From assembly GCA_025353105.1 (NCBI GenBank), contig JANXRG010000064.1, forward strand, positions 1 through 44,172: DNA of 44,172 bases, written 5' to 3'. The translations under genes and the position numbers were made by a program. A model generated the notes under the pieces. It saw nothing but the letters and a program-made list of their open reading frames with translations. It searched no databases and had not been told where the DNA came from. Origin of the DNA: Verrucomicrobiota bacterium. GTDB taxonomy: Bacteria; Verrucomicrobiota; Verrucomicrobiia; Chthoniobacterales; SZAS-18. Numbering within the stretch: the first letter of the stretch is position 1; each line of letters opens with the position of its first letter. Shown piece after piece: positions 1-44,172 of the stretch.

Positions 1-2070
1 GTGAACTTCGACTCCACCGTCGCGGGTGGCGGCGGGAACCTGTTTTTCGCCGGCGACGTGACACTCGCGGGGACCGGCAGTATCACACTGAAGGTCGAAA
101 GCCAGGACCTCATCGACGCGCTCAACGTCAACAGCACGCTCACCAATTCCTCCAGCCACACGATCAAGGGAGCCGGGGTGATGGGGCCCGGTTCGCTGTT
201 CTTTGCCTTCGCGAATGCGGGACTCGTGGACGCAAACGTGCCGGGCAAGACTCTCACGTTCATTACCCGCGATTCCAGCGGCGGAACCGTCACGAACACG
301 GGGACACTTCGCGCCAGTGGCGGCGGCCTGCTCACCCTTGCAAGCAACTCCGGCCCGGGCACGGTCACCAACACCGGGGGCCGGATCGAGGCGCTCGACG
401 CCTCTGTCGTCAACGTGCTGGGCGGCGTCACCGTCACCGGAGGCATGCTGGCGGCCATCGGCACCGGCGTCGTCCGTGGCGGGGTGTATGGTGTTGTTAA
501 CGGCGGCACATTCGCCAACCTCACGACCACCGGAAAGTTCGACCCCACGCTTTCGACCATCAGCGGCGTGGTGAGCAGCGCGGGTACCGTTACGGTATCG
601 ACGGACGGAGGCGCCACGCTCGCGAGCGGCGCGACCTTCAACAATCTCGCCGGCGCCACCGTCAACCTCACCAGCACCGGCGGATTCACGGGCAGCGGCA
701 CGTTCAACAATATTGGAACGCTGACGAAGTCCGGCAGCGGCCAGGCCGTGTTCACTGGGACGACCTTCCTGAACACCGGCACCGTGGCGGTCAACGCGGG
801 CGCCCTCGCCTTCGGGACCTTTACGCAAAGCGCCGGCACGCTGCGCTTCACCGGCGGGACAAGCGCCTCGGTCGGGTCCGGCCAGAGTTTCCAATTCACC
901 GGCGGCGCGCTCGCCGGCACCGGCACGATCACCGGGAACGCGGTGAACGCGGGCGCCCTCACGATCGGCAGCACCGACGCCACCACCTCCGCCATCACGA
1001 TCAGCGGCAACTTCACGCAGAACGCCGGCGCGATCCTCAACGCGAACATCGGCGGCCTCAACGCCGGCAACTTCGGCATGCTCACAATTGGCGGCGCCGC
1101 CACCCTCGCCGGCACCGTCAACGTCAATTTGGTCAACGGTTTCAAGTTCCGCGTCGGCGATTCCTTCCGCCTCGTTTCGGCGGGCTCTGTTTCCGGCGCT
1201 TTCTCCGGCGTCACGCTCCCCGCCGGCGTGCAGGGAACCCTCAGCGCAAACGGGACCGGCGTCACCCTCACGATCACCGTCGCTCCGCCGGCCGCCACCC
1301 TCATCAACATCGCCACGCGCGCCCGCGTCGAAACCGTCGACAACGTCATGATCGCCGGCTTCGTCATCACCGGCTCCACTTCCAAGAAAGTCATCGTGCG
1401 CGCCATCGGGCCATCGCTCACCGCCGCCGGCGTCTCCGGTGCGCTCTCCAATCCCACGCTCACACTCTACAACGCCCAAGCTCAGATCCTCGCCACCAAT
1501 GACGACTGGCGTTCCACGCAACAGGCCGAGATCATTGCCTCCACCTTCCCGCCCTCCGACAATCGGGAATCGGCCATCGTCGCCACTCTGCCCGCCGGCG
1601 CGTACACCGCCATCGTCAGCGGCGTGGGCGGCGAGATGGGCGTCGGCCTCGTCGAAGTCTACGACCTGGACCTGCCCAACGTCGCCACCGCGCGACCCAT
1701 CAACGTCGCCACCCGCGCCCGCGTGCTCACCGGCGACAGCGTCATGATCGCCGGCTTCGTCATCGGCGGCACGCGCCCCCGGCGCGTCATCGTACGCGCC
1801 ATCGGGCCAAGCCTGACGGCCGCCGGTGTTCCCGGGGCGCTGGCCGATCCCACGCTCACGCTCTACAACGCCCAGGCTCAGGTCCTCGCCACCAACGACA
1901 ATTGGAGGGACACCCAGCAGGCGGAGATCGCCGCCACGCCCTTCCCGCCGAGCAACGACCTCGAGTCAGCGATCGTGGCCACGCTCGATCCGGGCGCGTA
2001 CACCGCCATTGTCGCCGGCAAGAACGGCACCATCGGCGTCGGGCTCGTGGAAGTTTACGACCTCGAATAG
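1..2070 (+). CDS. Secreted beta-helix-like repeat protein, 5' partial
   Basis: The reading frame is open from the first base, so the true start and any signal peptide lie outside the window; the GTG at position 1 is probably an internal codon. The 689 visible residues fall in two parts. Residues 1 to about 430 are low-complexity, rich in G, T, N, A and S, with recurring pieces such as TNTGT, FNNIGTL, FLNTGTV and GTGTITGN. This pattern is typical of right-handed beta-helix or autotransporter-associated strand repeats. Residues 435-557 and 567-689 are two copies of a domain with the signature VIVRAIGPSLTAAGV and a closing GVGLVEVYDL, a domain often seen at the C-terminus of verrucomicrobial secreted proteins. 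No C-terminal beta-barrel is visible, so self-export as a classical autotransporter is unlikely. The exact function is unknown; a surface or extracellular adhesive role is inference. Confidence 0.8.
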   Translation: MNFDSTVAGGGGNLFFAGDVTLAGTGSITLKVESQDLIDALNVNSTLTNSSSHTIKGAGVMGPGSLFFAFANAGLVDANVPGKTLTFITRDSSGGTVTNTGTLRASGGGLLTLASNSGPGTVTNTGGRIEALDASVVNVLGGVTVTGGMLAAIGTGVVRGGVYGVVNGGTFANLTTTGKFDPTLSTISGVVSSAGTVTVSTDGGATLASGATFNNLAGATVNLTSTGGFTGSGTFNNIGTLTKSGSGQAVFTGTTFLNTGTVAVNAGALAFGTFTQSAGTLRFTGGTSASVGSGQSFQFTGGALAGTGTITGNAVNAGALTIGSTDATTSAITISGNFTQNAGAILNANIGGLNAGNFGMLTIGGAATLAGTVNVNLVNGFKFRVGDSFRLVSAGSVSGAFSGVTLPAGVQGTLSANGTGVTLTITVAPPAATLINIATRARVETVDNVMIAGFVITGSTSKKVIVRAIGPSLTAAGVSGALSNPTLTLYNAQAQILATNDDWRSTQQAEIIASTFPPSDNRESAIVATLPAGAYTAIVSGVGGEMGVGLVEVYDLDLPNVATARPINVATRARVLTGDSVMIAGFVIGGTRPRRVIVRAIGPSLTAAGVPGALADPTLTLYNAQAQVLATNDNWRDTQQAEIAATPFPPSNDLESAIVATLDPGAYTAIVAGKNGTIGVGLVEVYDLE
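1303..2067 (+). repeat. Tandem duplication of a 123-codon domain
   Basis: Copy 1 spans 1303-1671 and copy 2 spans 1699-2067; each is exactly 123 codons, separated by a 27-base linker. They are near-identical at the DNA level over long stretches, for example around the codons for TLTLYNAQAQ and AIGPSLTAAGV, which points to recent duplication or gene conversion. Each copy has two conserved blocks: VMIAGFVI near its start and YTAIV before the closing GVGLVEVYDL. Confidence 0.85.
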
Positions 2071-2518: not shown

Positions 2519-4144
<1,626 letters not shown>

Positions 4145-4149
4145 TCGCG

Positions 4150-5169
4150 ATGGACCTGAACACGATTTGGTTTCTGCTCGTTGGCATTCTTTTCACGGGA
4201 TACGCGGTCCTCGACGGGTTCGACCTTGGCATGGGCCCGCTGCTTTTTGCCGTGAAAACCGACGAGGAACGTCGCATCTTCCTCAATGCGATCGGTCCGA
4301 TCTGGAGTGGTAATGAGGTCTGGCTCGTCACCGGTGGTGGCGCGCTGTTCGCGGCGTTCCCTGAAGTGTACGCCACGGTGTTCTCGGGATTTTACGACGC
4401 GTTCATGTTGCTGCTGTTTGCGTTGATCTTCCGCGCGGTGGCCATCGAATTTCGCGGCCAGCGGCCAGAAGCTGGCTGGCGCCGCACGTGGGACATCTCC
4501 TTCGCCGTCGGCAGTCTCGCCTCGGCCCTGCTGATCGGCGTGGCCCTCGGAAATATTGTCTGGGGCATCCCGCTCGACGCCCGCCACGAGTTCCACGGTA
4601 GTTTCGTCACCCTGCTCCATCCGTACGCATTGCTGGTCGGCGTCACGACCGTGGCATTGTTCGTCATGCACGCGAACCTGTACCTTGTGCTGAAGACCGC
4701 CGGCTCGTTGCAGCAAAAGCTCATGGGCTGGACCACGCGGACCGTGCCAGCCTACCTTGTCCTTTTCATTGTTTTGAACGTGGTGACAATATTCACGTGT
4801 CCGCAGATCAAGTCGGCCTTGGGGCAGCGCTGGCTCCTCCTGGGCACCGCGGCCACCCTGTCGTTTGCCATCACGTTGAACATCCTTCGGGAGGTGCGCC
4901 TCAAACGGGACGGGCGCGCGTTTATCTGCTCCAGCCTGTCGATCGTGCTCCTGATGTTCCAGTTCGGTGCCGGAGTCTATCCGAACATGGTCTTCTCCGT
5001 TCCGGACCTGGCCAACAGCCTGAACATCCACAACGGCGCGTCGACCCAGAAGTCGCTGCAATTCATGTTCTACGTCGCGATGATCGGCGTGCCGATCGTG
5101 CTGACCTACACCGCGTCGATCTATTACATTTTCCGCGGCAAGGTGGTCCTCACGGAAGAATCGTACTAG
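4150..5169 (+). CDS. cydB: Cytochrome bd quinol oxidase subunit II
   Basis: CydB is the structural partner of CydA in the inner-membrane bd oxidase. The 339-residue protein opens with the diagnostic WFLLVGILFTGYAVLDGFDL, followed by GPIWSGNEVWLVTGGGALFA, and has about eight hydrophobic helices ending in VPIVLTYTASIYYIFRGKV. The length is normal for the family. It follows cydA by five bases, so the pair is co-transcribed. The next gene, tkt, is convergent, and the ABC exporter genes cydCD are not in the window. Confidence 0.96.
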   Translation: MDLNTIWFLLVGILFTGYAVLDGFDLGMGPLLFAVKTDEERRIFLNAIGPIWSGNEVWLVTGGGALFAAFPEVYATVFSGFYDAFMLLLFALIFRAVAIEFRGQRPEAGWRRTWDISFAVGSLASALLIGVALGNIVWGIPLDARHEFHGSFVTLLHPYALLVGVTTVALFVMHANLYLVLKTAGSLQQKLMGWTTRTVPAYLVLFIVLNVVTIFTCPQIKSALGQRWLLLGTAATLSFAITLNILREVRLKRDGRAFICSSLSIVLLMFQFGAGVYPNMVFSVPDLANSLNIHNGASTQKSLQFMFYVAMIGVPIVLTYTASIYYIFRGKVVLTEESY

Positions 5170-9501: not shown

Positions 9502-10512
9502 CTATTTCTTCTCGATGTGACCGCCGAATTGAAAACGCATCGCGGAAAGCAGCCTGTCCTGGTAATCGGCCTCGCCGCGCGAACTGAAGCGTTCGTACAG
9601 GGCCGCGGTGAGGACCGGCACGGGCACGCCCTCATCAATGGCGGCCTTGATCGTCCATCTCCCCTCGCCCGAATCCGAGACCTTGCCCGAAAACTTCGAG
9701 AGCTTCGTGTCCTCGACCAGTGAAGTCGCCGTCAGGTCCAGCAGCCACGAGGAGATCACACTACCCCGACGCCAAACTTCGGCAATGTCGGCGAGGTTGA
9801 GATCAAACTGATAATGCTCTGGTTCGCGCAGCGGCGTCGTCTCGGCGTCGACCTCGTGCATCCTTTTGCCGATGTCGGCGGAATGCAGGATGCCGAGACC
9901 CTCGGCATAGGCGGCCATCAAGCCGTACTCGATGCCGTTGTGCACCATCTTCACGAAATGCCCGGCCCCGCTCGGGCCGCAATGCAGGTAACCCTGCTCC
10001 GAGGTGCCACCGAGTTTTTCGCGGCCGGGCGTCACCGGGGCGTCGCCCTTGCCGGGTGCGAGGGTGTTGAAGATGGGATCGAGATGCCGCACGGTCGCAT
10101 CCGGGCCGCCGATCATCATACAGTAGCCGCGCTCCAGGCCCCACACGCCCCCGCTCGTGCCCACGCCGCAATAGTTAACCTGCCGCGGCGAAAGCTCCTT
10201 CGCGCGCCGGATGTCGTCGATGTAATACGAGTTGCCGCCGTCAATGATCGTGTCGCCCGCCTGCAGATGGGGCAGCAGGTCGGCGATCGCCGAGTCTACC
10301 ACCGCCGCCGGGACCATCAGCCAGATCGCGCGCGGCGTGCTCAGCTTCTTCACGAAGTCCGCCGTCGAAGTGGCGCCCACCGCCTTCTCCTTGGCCAGCG
10401 AGTTCACCGCTTCCGTGGAGCGATCATAGACGACGCAATCGTGGCCGTTCTTGATGAGGCGGCGCACCATGTTGGCGCCCATTCTGCCGAGTCCAATCAT
10501 TCCAAGTTGCAT
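9502..10512 (-). CDS. gnd: 6-phosphogluconate dehydrogenase, decarboxylating (short form)
   Basis: The enzyme oxidatively decarboxylates 6-phosphogluconate to ribulose 5-phosphate. The 336 residues begin with the dinucleotide-binding MQLGMIGLGRMGANMVRRL and carry the catalytic-region sequence HFVKMVHNGIEYGLMAAYAE. The length is that of the short GntZ/YqeC type, not the 470-residue E. coli type; the short type often prefers NAD+, but the cofactor cannot be read safely here. Its start is well supported: an AAAGGA Shine-Dalgarno lies just before ATG 10512. It lies between the DUF2090 gene and zwf in the operon. Confidence 0.94.
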   Translation of the reverse strand: MQLGMIGLGRMGANMVRRLIKNGHDCVVYDRSTEAVNSLAKEKAVGATSTADFVKKLSTPRAIWLMVPAAVVDSAIADLLPHLQAGDTIIDGGNSYYIDDIRRAKELSPRQVNYCGVGTSGGVWGLERGYCMMIGGPDATVRHLDPIFNTLAPGKGDAPVTPGREKLGGTSEQGYLHCGPSGAGHFVKMVHNGIEYGLMAAYAEGLGILHSADIGKRMHEVDAETTPLREPEHYQFDLNLADIAEVWRRGSVISSWLLDLTATSLVEDTKLSKFSGKVSDSGEGRWTIKAAIDEGVPVPVLTAALYERFSSRGEADYQDRLLSAMRFQFGGHIEKK

Positions 10513-10578
10513 AGATGTGTCCTTTGTTTTGTCCGATGGCGGATCGTGTTTGGTGAATCTGGCGGGATATCTGTCGAC

Positions 10579-11496
10579 TCAGCCCTTCTTGGCCTTCTCG
10601 AAAGTGTCGACGAACCCGCGGTAGCGCCGGGCCATCTCAGCCACGGCTTCTTCCCGCGTGATTTTCTTGGCAAGCCAGCCGACGAGCGGATCCCAGAAAT
10701 CAGTCCGGCCGACCGCGAAGCCGATAAAGCCCGGCACCGCCGCGGCGATGGAAAGCCACTCGTGCACCTTCTTGTCGTCCTCACCGCGGCCGAGGATGAT
10801 GCAGCCCACCTTGTCGCGACCGCCACGCCTGGCGGCGGCCACGATTTTTTCGCAATCTGAGCGGGAATCGAGACCTTCGATCTTCCAGAGGTCCGCCTCG
10901 ACGCCGGCATCCTGCATTTGCTCGATGGCCTTGACCATCAGCTTGGGGCGTAGTTCCAAATCGTAGCGCTTCTTGTCGCCGCCCAGCGCATCCAACTGCG
11001 CCTTCTCGGCCGGCACGAGCAATTCGAACATGAACTTGCTCTCACCCTTGGCATGCAGGTAATCGGACAGCCGCTTGAGTCGCGCCGTCTGCGTCGCATT
11101 CAGCGCCGCGTCGCCCTCCGCGTTGTAGCGCACGAGCACCTTGCAGAAGGTCGGCTTGAATTTCTCGAGGTGGCTGGCGAAATCGTCGCCGTACTCGAAG
11201 TCGAACTCATCCTGCCCGCTTTTCTCGGCGGGACAGGCGAATTGAAATCCCGCCGCGGCAACGTCGCGCAGGATGGCCTCGCCAAATTGTTCGTCGACCA
11301 GAATGCCGGCGATGTCCTTGGGCACGCCTCCCGCCACGGCGGAGAGGAAGCCATCATAAATGGCCCGCTTGGCGGCGGCGATCTGGGCCGTTTGATCCGC
11401 GCTCAGCGGCGCATGAAAACCAAACATTTTCGAGGCGAATGATCCACGGTGATCGAACGGCAGGATGTAGAGCGGGCGGTCGTATCCGAGAGACAT
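10579..11496 (-). CDS. DUF2090-family class I aldolase-like protein
   Basis: The 305-residue protein matches the DUF2090 family, related in fold to class I aldolases such as LacD and to the C-terminal part of some IolC proteins that handle 2-deoxy-5-keto-gluconate 6-phosphate. Visible blocks are LYILPFDHRGSFASKMFG at the N-terminus, ILVDEQFGEAILRD, CKVLVRYNAEGD, MFELLVPAEKAQLD, ADLWKIEGLDS and FAVGRTDFWDPL. The lysines in CKVLVRYN and LWKIEG are candidates for a Schiff-base residue; this is inference. An AGAAGGA Shine-Dalgarno precedes ATG 11496. The gene lies inside the PPP operon between pgi and gnd, with no other iol genes nearby, so a role on a sugar phosphate made by this pathway is likely. 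The actual substrate is unknown. Confidence 0.85.
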   Translation of the reverse strand: MSLGYDRPLYILPFDHRGSFASKMFGFHAPLSADQTAQIAAAKRAIYDGFLSAVAGGVPKDIAGILVDEQFGEAILRDVAAAGFQFACPAEKSGQDEFDFEYGDDFASHLEKFKPTFCKVLVRYNAEGDAALNATQTARLKRLSDYLHAKGESKFMFELLVPAEKAQLDALGGDKKRYDLELRPKLMVKAIEQMQDAGVEADLWKIEGLDSRSDCEKIVAAARRGGRDKVGCIILGRGEDDKKVHEWLSIAAAVPGFIGFAVGRTDFWDPLVGWLAKKITREEAVAEMARRYRGFVDTFEKAKKG

Positions 11497-11535
11497 GGCG
11501 ATGGTCCTTCTGGGGGTTGCGGGATCGGGCGAAAA

Positions 11536-13173
<1,638 letters not shown>

Positions 13174-41448: not shown

Positions 41449-42093
41449 ATGCTTCGTTCCCGCACGCGTCTGTTCTTCCTGCTGCTTGCCGCCTCCATCG
41501 TGGCGCTGGTGGTCGCCACGCGTCTGTCCCCGGACTTTGCCTACACCATGGGTGAGTCGTTCTTCCCCGAGCGGTTTCATCGTTACGATCGCATGATCGC
41601 GGAGATCTCGGGGCGTCACCAGGTCGATCCCGCGCTGGTGAAGGCGGTCATCTGGCGCGAGAGTCGGTTCCGGCCATATATGGAGGGTAGCTCCGGAGAA
41701 CGTGGCCTGATGCAGGTCGGCGAGTCAGCCGCCGCCGAATGGGCCAAGGCGGAGAAGATGGCTACCTTTGTCCCGACCGACCTCTTTGACCCGAAGACAA
41801 ACATCGAAGCGGGCACCTGGTACCTCGCGCAGGCTTTGCGCCGTTGGAACGACAAGGACGATCCCATTCCCTTTGCGCTCGCCGAGTACAATGCGGGTCG
41901 CCGGAACGTGAAGCGCTGGATCGATGACGCGAAGGCGCGGGAGCAAGAGCGCGAGCGCCGTCAGCCGGGATCGACGGATGCGCAAGTGTCTGGCGGAGAA
42001 CTAGCTGACAGCATCGATTTTCCCGGAACAAGAAACTACGTCGCGGCGATTAGACGGCGCATGGACTATTATAAGACACGGGGGAAGTTGTGA
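41449..42093 (+). CDS. Lytic transglycosylase (SLT domain)
   Basis: The 214-residue protein has an N-terminal anchor or uncleaved signal (LFFLLLAASIVALVVATRLS) and a soluble lytic transglycosylase domain. The catalytic glutamate is residue 71 in AVIWRESRFRPYM, followed by the family block GSSGERGLMQV, AGTWYLAQALRRWND and FALAEYNAGRRNVKRW. It cleaves peptidoglycan glycan strands in the periplasm, making 1,6-anhydromuramic ends. A GTG at 41431 is an in-frame alternative, but ATG 41449 puts the hydrophobic segment in the usual place. It is divergent from priA with 92 bases between the starts. Confidence 0.93.
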   Translation: MLRSRTRLFFLLLAASIVALVVATRLSPDFAYTMGESFFPERFHRYDRMIAEISGRHQVDPALVKAVIWRESRFRPYMEGSSGERGLMQVGESAAAEWAKAEKMATFVPTDLFDPKTNIEAGTWYLAQALRRWNDKDDPIPFALAEYNAGRRNVKRWIDDAKAREQERERRQPGSTDAQVSGGELADSIDFPGTRNYVAAIRRRMDYYKTRGKL

Positions 42094-42111
42094 CGGGGAG
42101 TGGCGTTGGAA

Positions 42112-42274
42112 GTTAAGCGTTAAGGGTCGGCGTACTAGTTATTGGTTTCCGGGTTATTCGTTATCGGCCGGGGGTTCAGGGTTAATGGTTTGGTGTTAAG
42201 CGACTGTCCTCTGTCCTCTGTCTTCTGTCTTCTGTCTTCTGTCCTCTGCCCGCTCGTCACTCATTACTCGTCCC
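42112..42274. repeat. Heptameric tandem-repeat spacer with drifting unit
   Basis: Most of the 233-base gap between the transglycosylase and protease genes is built of 7-bp units. Units of the GTTNNNN type start at 42112, 42119, 42138 and 42145, and again in unbroken register from 42153 to 42201 (seven units, six of them starting GTT). From 42205 the unit becomes TGTCYTC, six copies to 42246, and the register continues through three TCNTNNC-like units to 42274. No ORF spans it. Between the repeat and the protease start lies only an eight-T run (42283-42290) and the ribosome-binding region. Confidence 0.8.
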
Positions 42275-42326
42275 GGGGTATTTTTTTTGCCGGGAAACGG
42301 GCACGGACTTGGCTGATAGGTTGGGC

Positions 42327-43550
42327 ATGAAAGGCCATCGATACGTCGCATTTGTCGCGGGCGTTGGAATCGCGATCTCGGCCTGCGCGCCGGGCGCGCG
42401 GGCGGTCATTGTGCTGGGGAGCGGCGATCCGAACTTCAACGATGTCGCGCTGAACCCGCCCGCCGGTGCCCTGGCCAATAGCGGCTCGCAGTTCGAGGGA
42501 CTTTTCAACAGTTTTCTCGGCACGGTCATCGCTCCGAATTTCTTTATCACGGCCAATCACATCGGTGGCGGCGTGGGCAGCGTCTTCACGTTCCGCGGCG
42601 CCGACTACACGACGACCGCGACCTACGGGGACCCAGGTGGGAGCGATCTGCGCATTTGGCAGGTGGCTGGGACATTTCCAGAATTTGCCCCCCTGTACCT
42701 TGGCGCGGGCACCGAAGTCGGAAAATTGCTTGTGGCCTTTGGGCGCGGGACGAGGTGTGGCCCTGCCATCACGGGCGGCGGCAGCCCCGCCGGCTACGCG
42801 TGGGGCCCACTCGACTTCACCGAGCGCTGGGGCATCAACGTCGTGACCGACATTTACAACGACCCCGGCTACGGCCCGTTGCTGCATGCTACTTTTGATG
42901 CGGGAGCGGCCGGCCTCGGCGACTTTGAGTGCCATCTTTCCGATCACGACTCCGGCGGCGGATTGTTCATCCAGGAGGCTGGCGTCTGGAAACTGGCCGC
43001 AATTCATTTTACGGTCGACGGCCCGTTCTACGACGCGCCAACGGGGGGAAGTACGTTCAATGCGGCCCTGTTCGACATGCGGGGTTTTTACTTCGACGAC
43101 AGCAGTGGGGGTCGAATGCTGATCACCGGGTCCAGTCCCCTGCCGAGTGGTTTCTATTCAACTCAGATTTCCAGTCGGCTCAGTTGGATCCTCAGCGTAA
43201 TAAGTCCGCAGGACGATTCCGACGGCGACGGATTGGCGAATCTCGCGGAATACGCATTTGGTTCCGATCCCCTCAGTCCGGGCTCCGCGGCGGATCCGGT
43301 CGTCGCCATCGTTCAAACGGGCGCCGATAATTTTCTTGCCATCACCTACTCGCGCCCAAAATCGACCGCGGATTTGAACTACCTGGTCGAGGTTTCGGCT
43401 GACCTCCAGAATTGGAACAGCGGCGTCTCGTTCACAACGGTGGTGTCAGATTTGGACCAAGGCACGACACGGTCGGTGACGGTGCGCGACAACCGGTCGC
43501 AAGCCGAGAACAATCAGCGCTTCATCCGCGTGCGCGTGACGCGGCCGTAA
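42327..43550 (+). CDS. Secreted trypsin-like serine protease with calcium-binding-like linker
   Basis: The 407-residue protein has a signal peptide (HRYVAFVAGVGIAISACAPG, cleavage near ARA). Residues 30-275 form an S1-like chymotrypsin fold. The triad is readable: His78 in FFITANHIGGG, Asp107 in GGSDLRIWQV and Ser209 in SDHDSGGGLFIQ. The usual GDSGGP is replaced by HDSGGG, which keeps the catalytic serine. A short Asp-rich motif of the thrombospondin type 3 sort follows (DDSDGDGLANLAEYAFGSDP, about 300-320). The C-terminal beta-rich domain (YLVEVSADLQNWNSG) resembles the end domains of other verrucomicrobial secreted proteins. ATG 42327 fits the signal peptide. Active-site geometry supports activity, but this is not proven. 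Confidence 0.75.
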   Translation: MKGHRYVAFVAGVGIAISACAPGARAVIVLGSGDPNFNDVALNPPAGALANSGSQFEGLFNSFLGTVIAPNFFITANHIGGGVGSVFTFRGADYTTTATYGDPGGSDLRIWQVAGTFPEFAPLYLGAGTEVGKLLVAFGRGTRCGPAITGGGSPAGYAWGPLDFTERWGINVVTDIYNDPGYGPLLHATFDAGAAGLGDFECHLSDHDSGGGLFIQEAGVWKLAAIHFTVDGPFYDAPTGGSTFNAALFDMRGFYFDDSSGGRMLITGSSPLPSGFYSTQISSRLSWILSVISPQDDSDGDGLANLAEYAFGSDPLSPGSAADPVVAIVQTGADNFLAITYSRPKSTADLNYLVEVSADLQNWNSGVSFTTVVSDLDQGTTRSVTVRDNRSQAENNQRFIRVRVTRP

Positions 43551-43590: not shown

Positions 43591-43688
43591 GTGGAACGCG
43601 ATCTCCGAGCGCGTTGGCGAAAATAAATGCAGTCCGCGCCCGCGGACTGCCAAACCCTTTGGCAACGCGCTCAGAGATCGCGTTCCAC
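43591..43688. repeat. REP/BIME-like nested palindrome
   Basis: Outer arms 43591-43618 and 43661-43688 are inverted copies (26 of 28 positions). Inside lies a perfect 10-bp inverted repeat, GCAGTCCGCG (43629-43638) and CGCGGACTGC (43641-43650), with a two-base loop. The outer arm recurs at the right window edge (44153-44172), on the other side of the RAYT gene. Paired palindromes next to a RAYT are the arrangement of bacterial REP elements. Confidence 0.8.
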
Positions 43689-43710
43689 CTGAATCACGCG
43701 CCCGGCAAGG

Positions 43711-44126
43711 TCACGTCAGCGAGAGAATCCACGGCCAATCCTCGGGTGATTTGCACAGCCCCTTTGCCGCAGCGGTTCGATCTCGTTGCGCAAGAGATGA
43801 TCGAAGAACCCGTCCTGCCACTGCACGCTAAGGTGCCTAGTTTGAAATCGCTTCCAATCGCCGACCACCCGGCTCATCGCATCATTGTCTGGGAATCCGA
43901 CGAGCGCATGTAGGTGGTCAGGCATCAACAAGAACAGCACCAGCTCCCAACGTGATCGTTCATGGTAGGTTCGCGCAGATTTCAATAGCTGTTGCGCAAG
44001 TTCGGGCTCGGTGAGGACTGGACAAACCGCTCGAATCCGAATGTGAGAAGGCGCGCCACGTGACACCCAACCGGGCGTGTCATGAGCCAAGCGACCGGGA
44101 AACCCTTGATCAAGCCTTCGCTCCAC
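43711..44126 (-). pseudogene. Broken REP-associated tyrosine transposase (RAYT)
   Basis: The frame from GTG 44126 to TGA 43716 encodes 136 residues of an IS200-like Y1 transposase: HDTPGWVSRGAPSHIRIRAV near the start, the metal-binding HxH in LFLLMPDHLHALVGFP, VVGDWKRFQTRHLSVQWQDG and FFDHLLRNE. After that point the normal catalytic-tyrosine segment is missing. The usual C-terminal end (GLCKSPEDWPWIL) is present just downstream but in another frame, ending at 43711. A deletion that is not a multiple of three therefore removed the nucleophile region and shifted the frame. Copies of the REP-like palindrome lie on both sides. In cells with intact RAYTs the protein cuts and joins REP DNA; this copy should be inactive. 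Confidence 0.8.
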
Positions 44127-44152
44127 GGAGTAAGACTAGGCATCGGCACGGC

Positions 44153-44172
44153 GGAACGCGATCTCCGAGCGC
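44153..44172. repeat. Second REP-like repeat copy, cut by the window end
   Basis: The last 20 bases (GGAACGCGATCTCCGAGCGC) match 43593-43612 exactly and lie upstream of the RAYT start, so the RAYT is bracketed by REP copies. The rest of this copy is beyond the window. Confidence 0.8.

What the first reader, a model, noticed from the sequence alone, without database searches (positions are those of the whole stretch)
42112..42274. Intergenic spacer made of 7-bp units whose sequence drifts from GTTNNNN to TGTCYTC to TCNTNNC
The sequence shows unbroken 7-bp register over two blocks (42153-42201 and 42205-42274), with further units upstream. Unit families change along the tract but the period does not, and 7 bp is not a codon multiple, so no coding constraint explains it. 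Heptameric short tandem repeats are established in some cyanobacteria; I do not know a named family of this kind in this lineage. A copying process that keeps unit length but lets sequence drift is an inference.
Basis: partly seen in the sequence, partly recalled or inferred. Interest (0 to 1): 0.7.

Follow-up and report, generated by a model that had tools for sequence, protein, structure and literature searches.

The report
Drifting seven-base repeats between genes
The gap between two genes is built of 7-base units copied head to tail and slowly mutated, one of dozens of such arrays in this Verrucomicrobiota genome; 7-base intergenic repeats are a known bacterial phenomenon, but the many unit families, their fixed length and their mirror-image pairing here have hardly been described.

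Summary
Spacer 42094-42326 carries a strong 7-bp tandem array at 42204-42274 and a weaker, indel-broken one at 42105-42201. Lag-7 identity is far above dinucleotide shuffles and is the window's highest at any lag tested. The locus is not special: in 1.4 Mb of the same genome I found 92 noncoding lag-7 segments, against 0-5 at lags 4-6, 8-11 and 13. About 34 unit words occur.

Unit similarity falls smoothly with unit distance, which points to local tandem duplication plus point mutation.

Three features go beyond simple slippage. Arrays read purine-rich inward from the nearest gene (57 of 69). Two-array spacers with opposite bias are always purine...pyrimidine (18:0 in four genomes with different words). 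One word, GAAACTC, forms the ends of a dispersed ~150-bp hairpin element limited to this genus. Most order genomes sampled match the 7-bp skeleton, and one genus shows period 8 as well.

Heptameric intergenic repeats are known from Xanthomonas, Nostoc and Beggiatoaceae, including convergent pairs in Xanthomonas. I rate this a new variant of a known kind. Function at this locus is probably none.

The parts
42094..42326 (.). Intergenic spacer between a transglycosylase gene and a 407-aa ORF; about 170 of 233 bp are heptamer units
   Evidence: ORFs, Pfam SLT domain on the left gene, lag-7 scan
42105..42151 (+). Degenerate heptamer units GTTGGAA GTTAAGC GTTAAGG GTCGGCG (TACTA) GTTATTG GTTTCCG
   Evidence: Sequence; lag-7 identity 0.48 over 42094-42203, z 4.4
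42153..42201 (+). Block 1: GTTATTC GTTATCG GCCGGGG GTTCAGG GTTAATG GTTTGGT GTTAAGC
   Evidence: z 3.5, p 0.001
42202..42204 (.). 3-bp phase break between the two blocks
   Evidence: sequence, phased print
42205..42246 (+). Block 2a: six TGTCYTC units
   Evidence: TRF score 69-76; z 7.1 for 42205-42274; same word at C10, C31, C100, C109, C117 of this genome
42247..42274 (+). Block 2b: four diverged in-register units TGCCCGC TCGTCAC TCATTAC TCGTCCC
   Evidence: phased print; similarity falling with unit distance
41458..42093 (+). Left neighbour: lytic transglycosylase (SLT domain); not part of the array
   Evidence: PF01464 E 5.8e-24
42327..43550 (+). Right neighbour: ORF of 407 aa with a signal-like N-terminus, no Pfam family; not part of the array

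Best explanation
The tract is a satellite-like, noncoding mosaic of heptamer tandem repeats. Short arrays of one 7-bp word are gained and lost by local tandem duplication (replication slippage or unequal exchange in 7-bp steps). Loops of 7 nt would be expected to escape mismatch repair; this step is inferred. Units then diverge by point mutation, so neighbours stay similar and distant units do not. Different words become juxtaposed at indel breaks. Spacers tolerate this and coding sequence does not. In this genome the same process also surrounds a dispersed ~150-bp palindromic element whose ends are four to five GAAACTC heptamers, so some words spread as element ends while others, such as the window's TGTCYTC, occur as bare arrays. 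At this locus I see no sign of function: no hairpin, no Rfam match, no array beside the transglycosylase gene in the relatives checked. Shown: period 7 genome-wide, similarity decay, polarity, pairing, word sharing without shared flanks. Inferred: slippage as the motor, neutrality at this locus.
For: Only lag 7 and its multiples are enriched in the genome's noncoding DNA: 92 segments at lag 7 against 0-5 at lags 4-6, 8-11 and 13, and 44 against 0 in Markov-shuffled spacers in a first 735-kb sample. Unit similarity decays with unit distance from 0.78 to 0.52 over 10 units, near-flat (0.65 to 0.61) when unit order is shuffled, in 34 arrays (first seen). The window's TGTCYTC array matches other loci only within the array and not in its flanks. 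Many words occur: 34 canonical words among 64 exact runs. An E. coli stretch of 50 kb has none.
Against: Plain slippage predicts neither the inverted pairs, the purine-inward polarity, nor the reuse of the same word at many loci. It does not say why 7: a fixed polymerase footprint is hard to square with a genus of the same order that has many period-8 arrays of the same architecture. In 7 of 37 arrays mismatches are unevenly spread over the seven columns at p < 0.05 (about 2 expected), with GA/GAA held in several, which hints at constraint. No strain or read data show copy-number change.
Confidence: 0.62

Rival explanations
1. The arrays are terminal repeats, intact or decayed, of MITE-like palindromic elements moved by an unknown transposase; the window tract is a degenerate or half copy.
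For: GAAACTC/TTCGAGT pairs bound a dispersed element with sharp edges, a ~35-bp heptamer end and a ~80-bp partly conserved core; it folds as a hairpin, z mostly -3 to -13; it is in all 3 genomes of the genus and absent from 4 sister-genus genomes. Two-array spacers with opposite bias are always purine...pyrimidine, 18:0.
Against: The window spacer is no hairpin (z +1.2); TGTCYTC arrays share no flanks; no target duplication or transposase link was found; arrays often occur singly and with many words.
Confidence: 0.2
2. The arrays are cis-regulatory: repeated binding sites for an RNA- or DNA-binding protein, acting on transcript ends or translation starts, as proposed for TAACTGA repeats in Beggiatoaceae.
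For: Arrays often lie within tens of bases of gene ends; strand rule relative to the gene: 5' side pyrimidine on the coding strand 36:5, 3' side purine 24:9. Uneven column conservation in some arrays. Precedent PMC4679880.
Against: Dozens of words in one genome; words change between genera; unit identity follows distance rather than a fixed motif; almost no covariation in the hairpin element.
Confidence: 0.12
3. A dedicated process writes units of fixed length (7 in most lineages, 8 in one genus) at spacer edges, for example an element-encoded polymerase or strand-switching repair that makes inverted pairs.
For: Period is nearly exclusive within G000 (139 skeleton matches at 7, 0 at 8) while genus g19 has more at 8 than at 7 in three of four genomes; polarity and convergent pairing are the same although words differ.
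Against: No candidate enzyme was identified or tested; g19 genomes and G001 carry both periods; skeleton counts overlap and a few long arrays can dominate.
Confidence: 0.06

Closest known systems
Heptameric GGGNATC / GGGGAYT intergenic repeats of Xanthomonas and Nostoc (Rehm 2015, PMC4692102)
   Same: 7-bp units, intergenic, heterogeneous units, purine-rich strand pointing away from the nearest gene end, convergent inverted pairs (70-75 cases per Xanthomonas genome), length variable between species
   Different: One main G-rich word per genome is described there; here about 34 words, often several in one spacer, and most are not G-tract words
TAACTGA direct repeats of Beggiatoaceae, Cyanobacteria and Bacteroidetes (MacGregor 2015, PMC4679880)
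   Same: Intergenic heptamer tandem repeats, other heptamers mixed in within some genomes
   Different: Single word, mostly just upstream of start codons in Maribeggiatoa; there close variants are rare as repeats, here variants are the rule
Short tandemly repeated repetitive (STRR) heptamers of heterocystous cyanobacteria
   Same: Heptameric tandem repeats in spacers (from my own knowledge; Calothrix heptamers are cited in PMC4692102)
   Different: Different words and lineage; inverted pairing not, to my knowledge, a defining feature
Long simple sequence repeats of 5-11 bp, heptamers most abundant (Mrazek 2007, as cited in PMC4679880 and PMC4692102)
   Same: Genome-wide excess of period 7; slippage proposed as the cause
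   Different: That survey, as cited, concerned long near-perfect repeats; here most arrays are diverged, and a genus rich in period-8 arrays exists in the same order

Membership tests
Heptameric intergenic simple sequence repeats (LSSR class) | 7-bp tandem units in excess over other unit lengths | tested here: met
   92 noncoding segments at lag 7 against 0-5 at other non-multiple lags from 4 to 13
Heptameric intergenic simple sequence repeats (LSSR class) | mostly intergenic | tested here: met
   92 of 102 lag-7 segments mostly noncoding, home-made gene calls
Heptameric intergenic simple sequence repeats (LSSR class) | copy number varies between strains | not testable with these tools
   no second strain of the species held; nearest genomes are other species of the genus
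Xanthomonas/Nostoc GGGNATC repeats | GGG tract in every unit (G-quadruplex potential) | tested here: not met
   window words TGTCYTC and GTTNNNN have no GGG in each unit
Xanthomonas/Nostoc GGGNATC repeats | convergent inverted pairs and purine strand directed away from the gene | tested here: met
   18:0 pairs in four genomes, 57:12 polarity in G000; at the window only the right block fits the polarity and no hairpin forms
TAACTGA repeats | word TAACTGA, close variants rare | tested here: not met
   words differ and variants abound
MITE / palindromic mobile element | dispersed copies with shared ends, core and target duplication | tested here: inconclusive
   ends and part of the core shared for GAAACTC elements; target duplication and empty sites not shown; the window tract itself shares no flanks
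Known structured RNA (Rfam) | match to a covariance model | tested here: not met
   only tRNAs found in window, L087, L025, L116, L118, L093

The most novel reading that the evidence does not exclude
Verrucomicrobiota genomes carry a period-locked repeat-writing process (7 bp in most lineages, 8 bp prominent in one genus) that builds convergent, purine-first arrays at spacer edges, with lineage-specific words but an invariant geometry shared with Xanthomonas. It would not be generic slippage but an unidentified element or enzyme.
Probability: 0.12. Interest if true: 0.8.

Novelty: new variant of a known kind. Interest (0 to 1): 0.5.

Why it matters
Heptamers were reported as the most abundant long repeat class in a 2007 survey, and why seven is favoured is still unsettled as far as the papers I could read say. 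Here one order offers many genomes with period 7, one genus rich in period 8, many words and a constant geometry, so the polymerase-footprint idea, element-borne spread and binding-site selection can be told apart by comparing strains and relatives. For genome reading, such spacers should not be annotated as genes or as unique regulatory sites.

Tried and rejected
Coding origin: ORF 42142-42330 runs through the array, but it is short and is best read as a by-product of a stop-free word. Hairpin or RNA element at the window: fold z +1.2 and +0.75, no Rfam match. Dispersed copy with flanks: only the array itself matches elsewhere in the fetched genome. Syntenic comparison: short flanks of the transglycosylase gene in 5 relatives show no lag-7 array. 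Word specificity in IMG/VR: TGTCYTC x3 in 42 stretches, but the reversed pattern is partly a rotation of the same word and a scramble gives 12, so only a weak preference. Paralogous gene pair on C10 (89% identical) with different upstream arrays: suggestive of fast array turnover, but the duplication ends at the arrays, so not conclusive. RAYT as mover of heptamers: its own palindrome GGAACGCGATCTC is a different repeat; not pursued. The genome-contig scan with the transglycosylase found nothing.

Full report
Observation. The spacer 42094-42326 lies between a lytic transglycosylase gene (41458-42093, SLT domain) and a 407-aa ORF starting at ATG 42327. Its right half, 42205-42274, is ten units of exactly 7 bp: TGTCCTC x2, TGTCTTC x3, TGTCCTC, TGCCCGC, TCGTCAC, TCATTAC, TCGTCCC. 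Lag-7 identity there is 0.79 against 0.34 in dinucleotide shuffles (z 7.1); TRF finds 6.4 copies at 94%. The left half holds GTTNNNN units from 42105 to 42201, weaker (z 4.4 for 42094-42203; z 3.5 for 42153-42201) and interrupted by breaks of 5, 1 and 3 bp. The step from GTT words to TGTCYTC is a phase-broken junction, not drift.

Not a single locus. The window is contig 1 of a 3.72-Mb genome in 121 contigs, by PriA similarity a Verrucomicrobiota related to MAGs labelled Verrucomicrobia and Chthoniobacter flavus (66% and 60% identity). I fetched 1.4 Mb of it, called genes with a simple codon-usage model and scanned every lag. Noncoding segments above threshold: 92 at lag 7, 37 at lag 14, and 0-5 at lags 4-6, 8-11 and 13. 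In an earlier 735-kb sample the count was 44 against 0 in Markov-shuffled spacers. Words include TGTCCTC, GAAACTC, GGAACAA, GAATGCC, GTCGAGG, TCGTCAT, GTTATTA and GGTTAAT, often several in one spacer. E. coli, 50 kb: none.

How it evolves. Over 34 arrays from this genome and relatives, unit identity falls from 0.78 (neighbours) to 0.52 (ten units apart); with unit order shuffled it stays near 0.65-0.61. This is what local duplication with mutation predicts; a fixed binding motif would give a flat curve. Detection by lag 7 favours neighbour identity, but it does not by itself explain the gradual decline. The window array behaves the same: 0.79, 0.71, 0.59, 0.60, 0.54, 0.46. In 7 of 37 arrays the mismatches are unevenly spread over the seven columns at p < 0.05, with GA or GAA held in several; this is a modest excess and may mean some constraint.

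Geometry. For arrays with a clear strand bias, the strand reading inward from the nearest gene is purine-rich in 57 of 69 cases (p 4e-8), and in 35 of 43 after removing the GAAACTC family. Spacers with two oppositely biased arrays are always purine then pyrimidine: 18 against 0 in G000, G018, G003 and G001, although the genomes differ in their leading words (AACTCCG in G018, AGGATGC in G003). Rehm et al. 2015 (PMC4692102) report the same for GGGNATC repeats: convergent pairs, G-rich strand on the coding strand after a gene and on the non-coding strand before one. The rule can come from element structure or from selection near gene ends (purine-rich upstream sequence could mimic ribosome-binding sites); the present data do not separate the two.

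A dispersed hairpin element. GAAACTC arrays face TTCGAGT arrays across about 80 bp; the ends (four to five heptamers, then GAAGNAA) are strongly conserved, the core partly, the flanks not at all. RNA folding z is mostly -3 to -13 on either strand, but there is almost no covariation to support a selected RNA fold. About 24 strict copies exist in G000. The doubled word is in all three genomes of the genus, in none of four sister-genus genomes and in 2 of about 140 others of the order. So some heptamers spread as ends of a genus-limited palindromic repeat. The window locus is not one: it has no hairpin, and only its TGTCYTC array, not its flanks, matches other loci.

Wider spread. A generic skeleton (GRA every 7 bp, five times; about 0.2-0.3 expected per genome by base composition alone) occurs in 89 of 97 genomes of the order, up to 1160 overlapping matches. 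With 8-bp spacing most genomes fall to near zero (G000: 139 to 0), but four genomes of genus g19 (G025, G047, G064, G076) give 105, 312, 405 and 226 at period 8 against 207, 71, 163 and 66 at period 7, with convergent pairs as well. These counts overlap within arrays and include coding sequence; I could not fetch an unbiased sample. TGTCYTC x3 is in 4 of 144 order genomes from several families and in 42 stretches of IMG/VR contigs.

Verdict. The feature is real and belongs to a known kind, heptameric intergenic tandem repeats, in a phylum where I found no report (one search returned none in the held library, which lacks most subscription papers). The best account is 7-bp-step tandem duplication with drift in tolerated spacers, confidence 0.62. 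What is new is the number of words, the constant inward-purine geometry across genomes with different words, the hairpin element and the hint that the period is a lineage trait. Limits: draft MAG, home-made gene calls, no strains, no expression data.

Noticed in passing
window 43593-44172: A Y1_Tnp (IS200-like, RAYT-type) gene at 43716-44126(-) lies among palindromic repeats with GGAACGCGATCTCCGAGCGCG (17 copies of GGAACGCGATCTC in the fetched 1.4 Mb; 8 Y1_Tnp matches in the genome): a REP/RAYT-like system apparently unrelated to the heptamers.
   Followed up: partly
L087:8530-8674, L085:15676-15824, L093:4309-4439, L097:5138-5270 and about 20 more: Genus-limited dispersed palindromic element of about 150 bp with GAAACTC heptamer ends and a partly conserved ~80-bp core.
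   Followed up: partly
genomes G047, G064, G076 (genus g19), e.g. G064:C7:2123-2249, G076:C14:6871-6961: Same kind of arrays and convergent pairs but with period 8 (GGAGTGAT, GGAGTTCA words).
   Followed up: partly
L025 (C10) 3687-4796 and 9658-10763: Gene duplicated within 6 kb at 89% identity; one copy has a 196-bp heptamer mosaic upstream, the other a short one.
   Followed up: partly
L116:971-1068 and 1332-1469; L118:6204-6335: Other PVC MAGs also carry convergent heptamer pairs with other words (CGAACAT/GTTCAAT, TCAGAAG/TTCTGAC).
   Followed up: no
L182:13479-13538 and 11478-11568 (G031, another family): Both window words, GTTAAGC/GTTGGRC and TGTCCTC, recur as arrays close together in a genome of a different family.
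   Followed up: no
window 1302-2063: Tandem duplication of a 396-bp unit, 77% matches, probably a repeated protein domain.
   Followed up: no
L091 (C100) 165-215, L092 (C109) 117-152: Heptamer arrays sit within about 200 bp of contig ends, so long arrays may be breaking or shortening the assembly.
   Followed up: no
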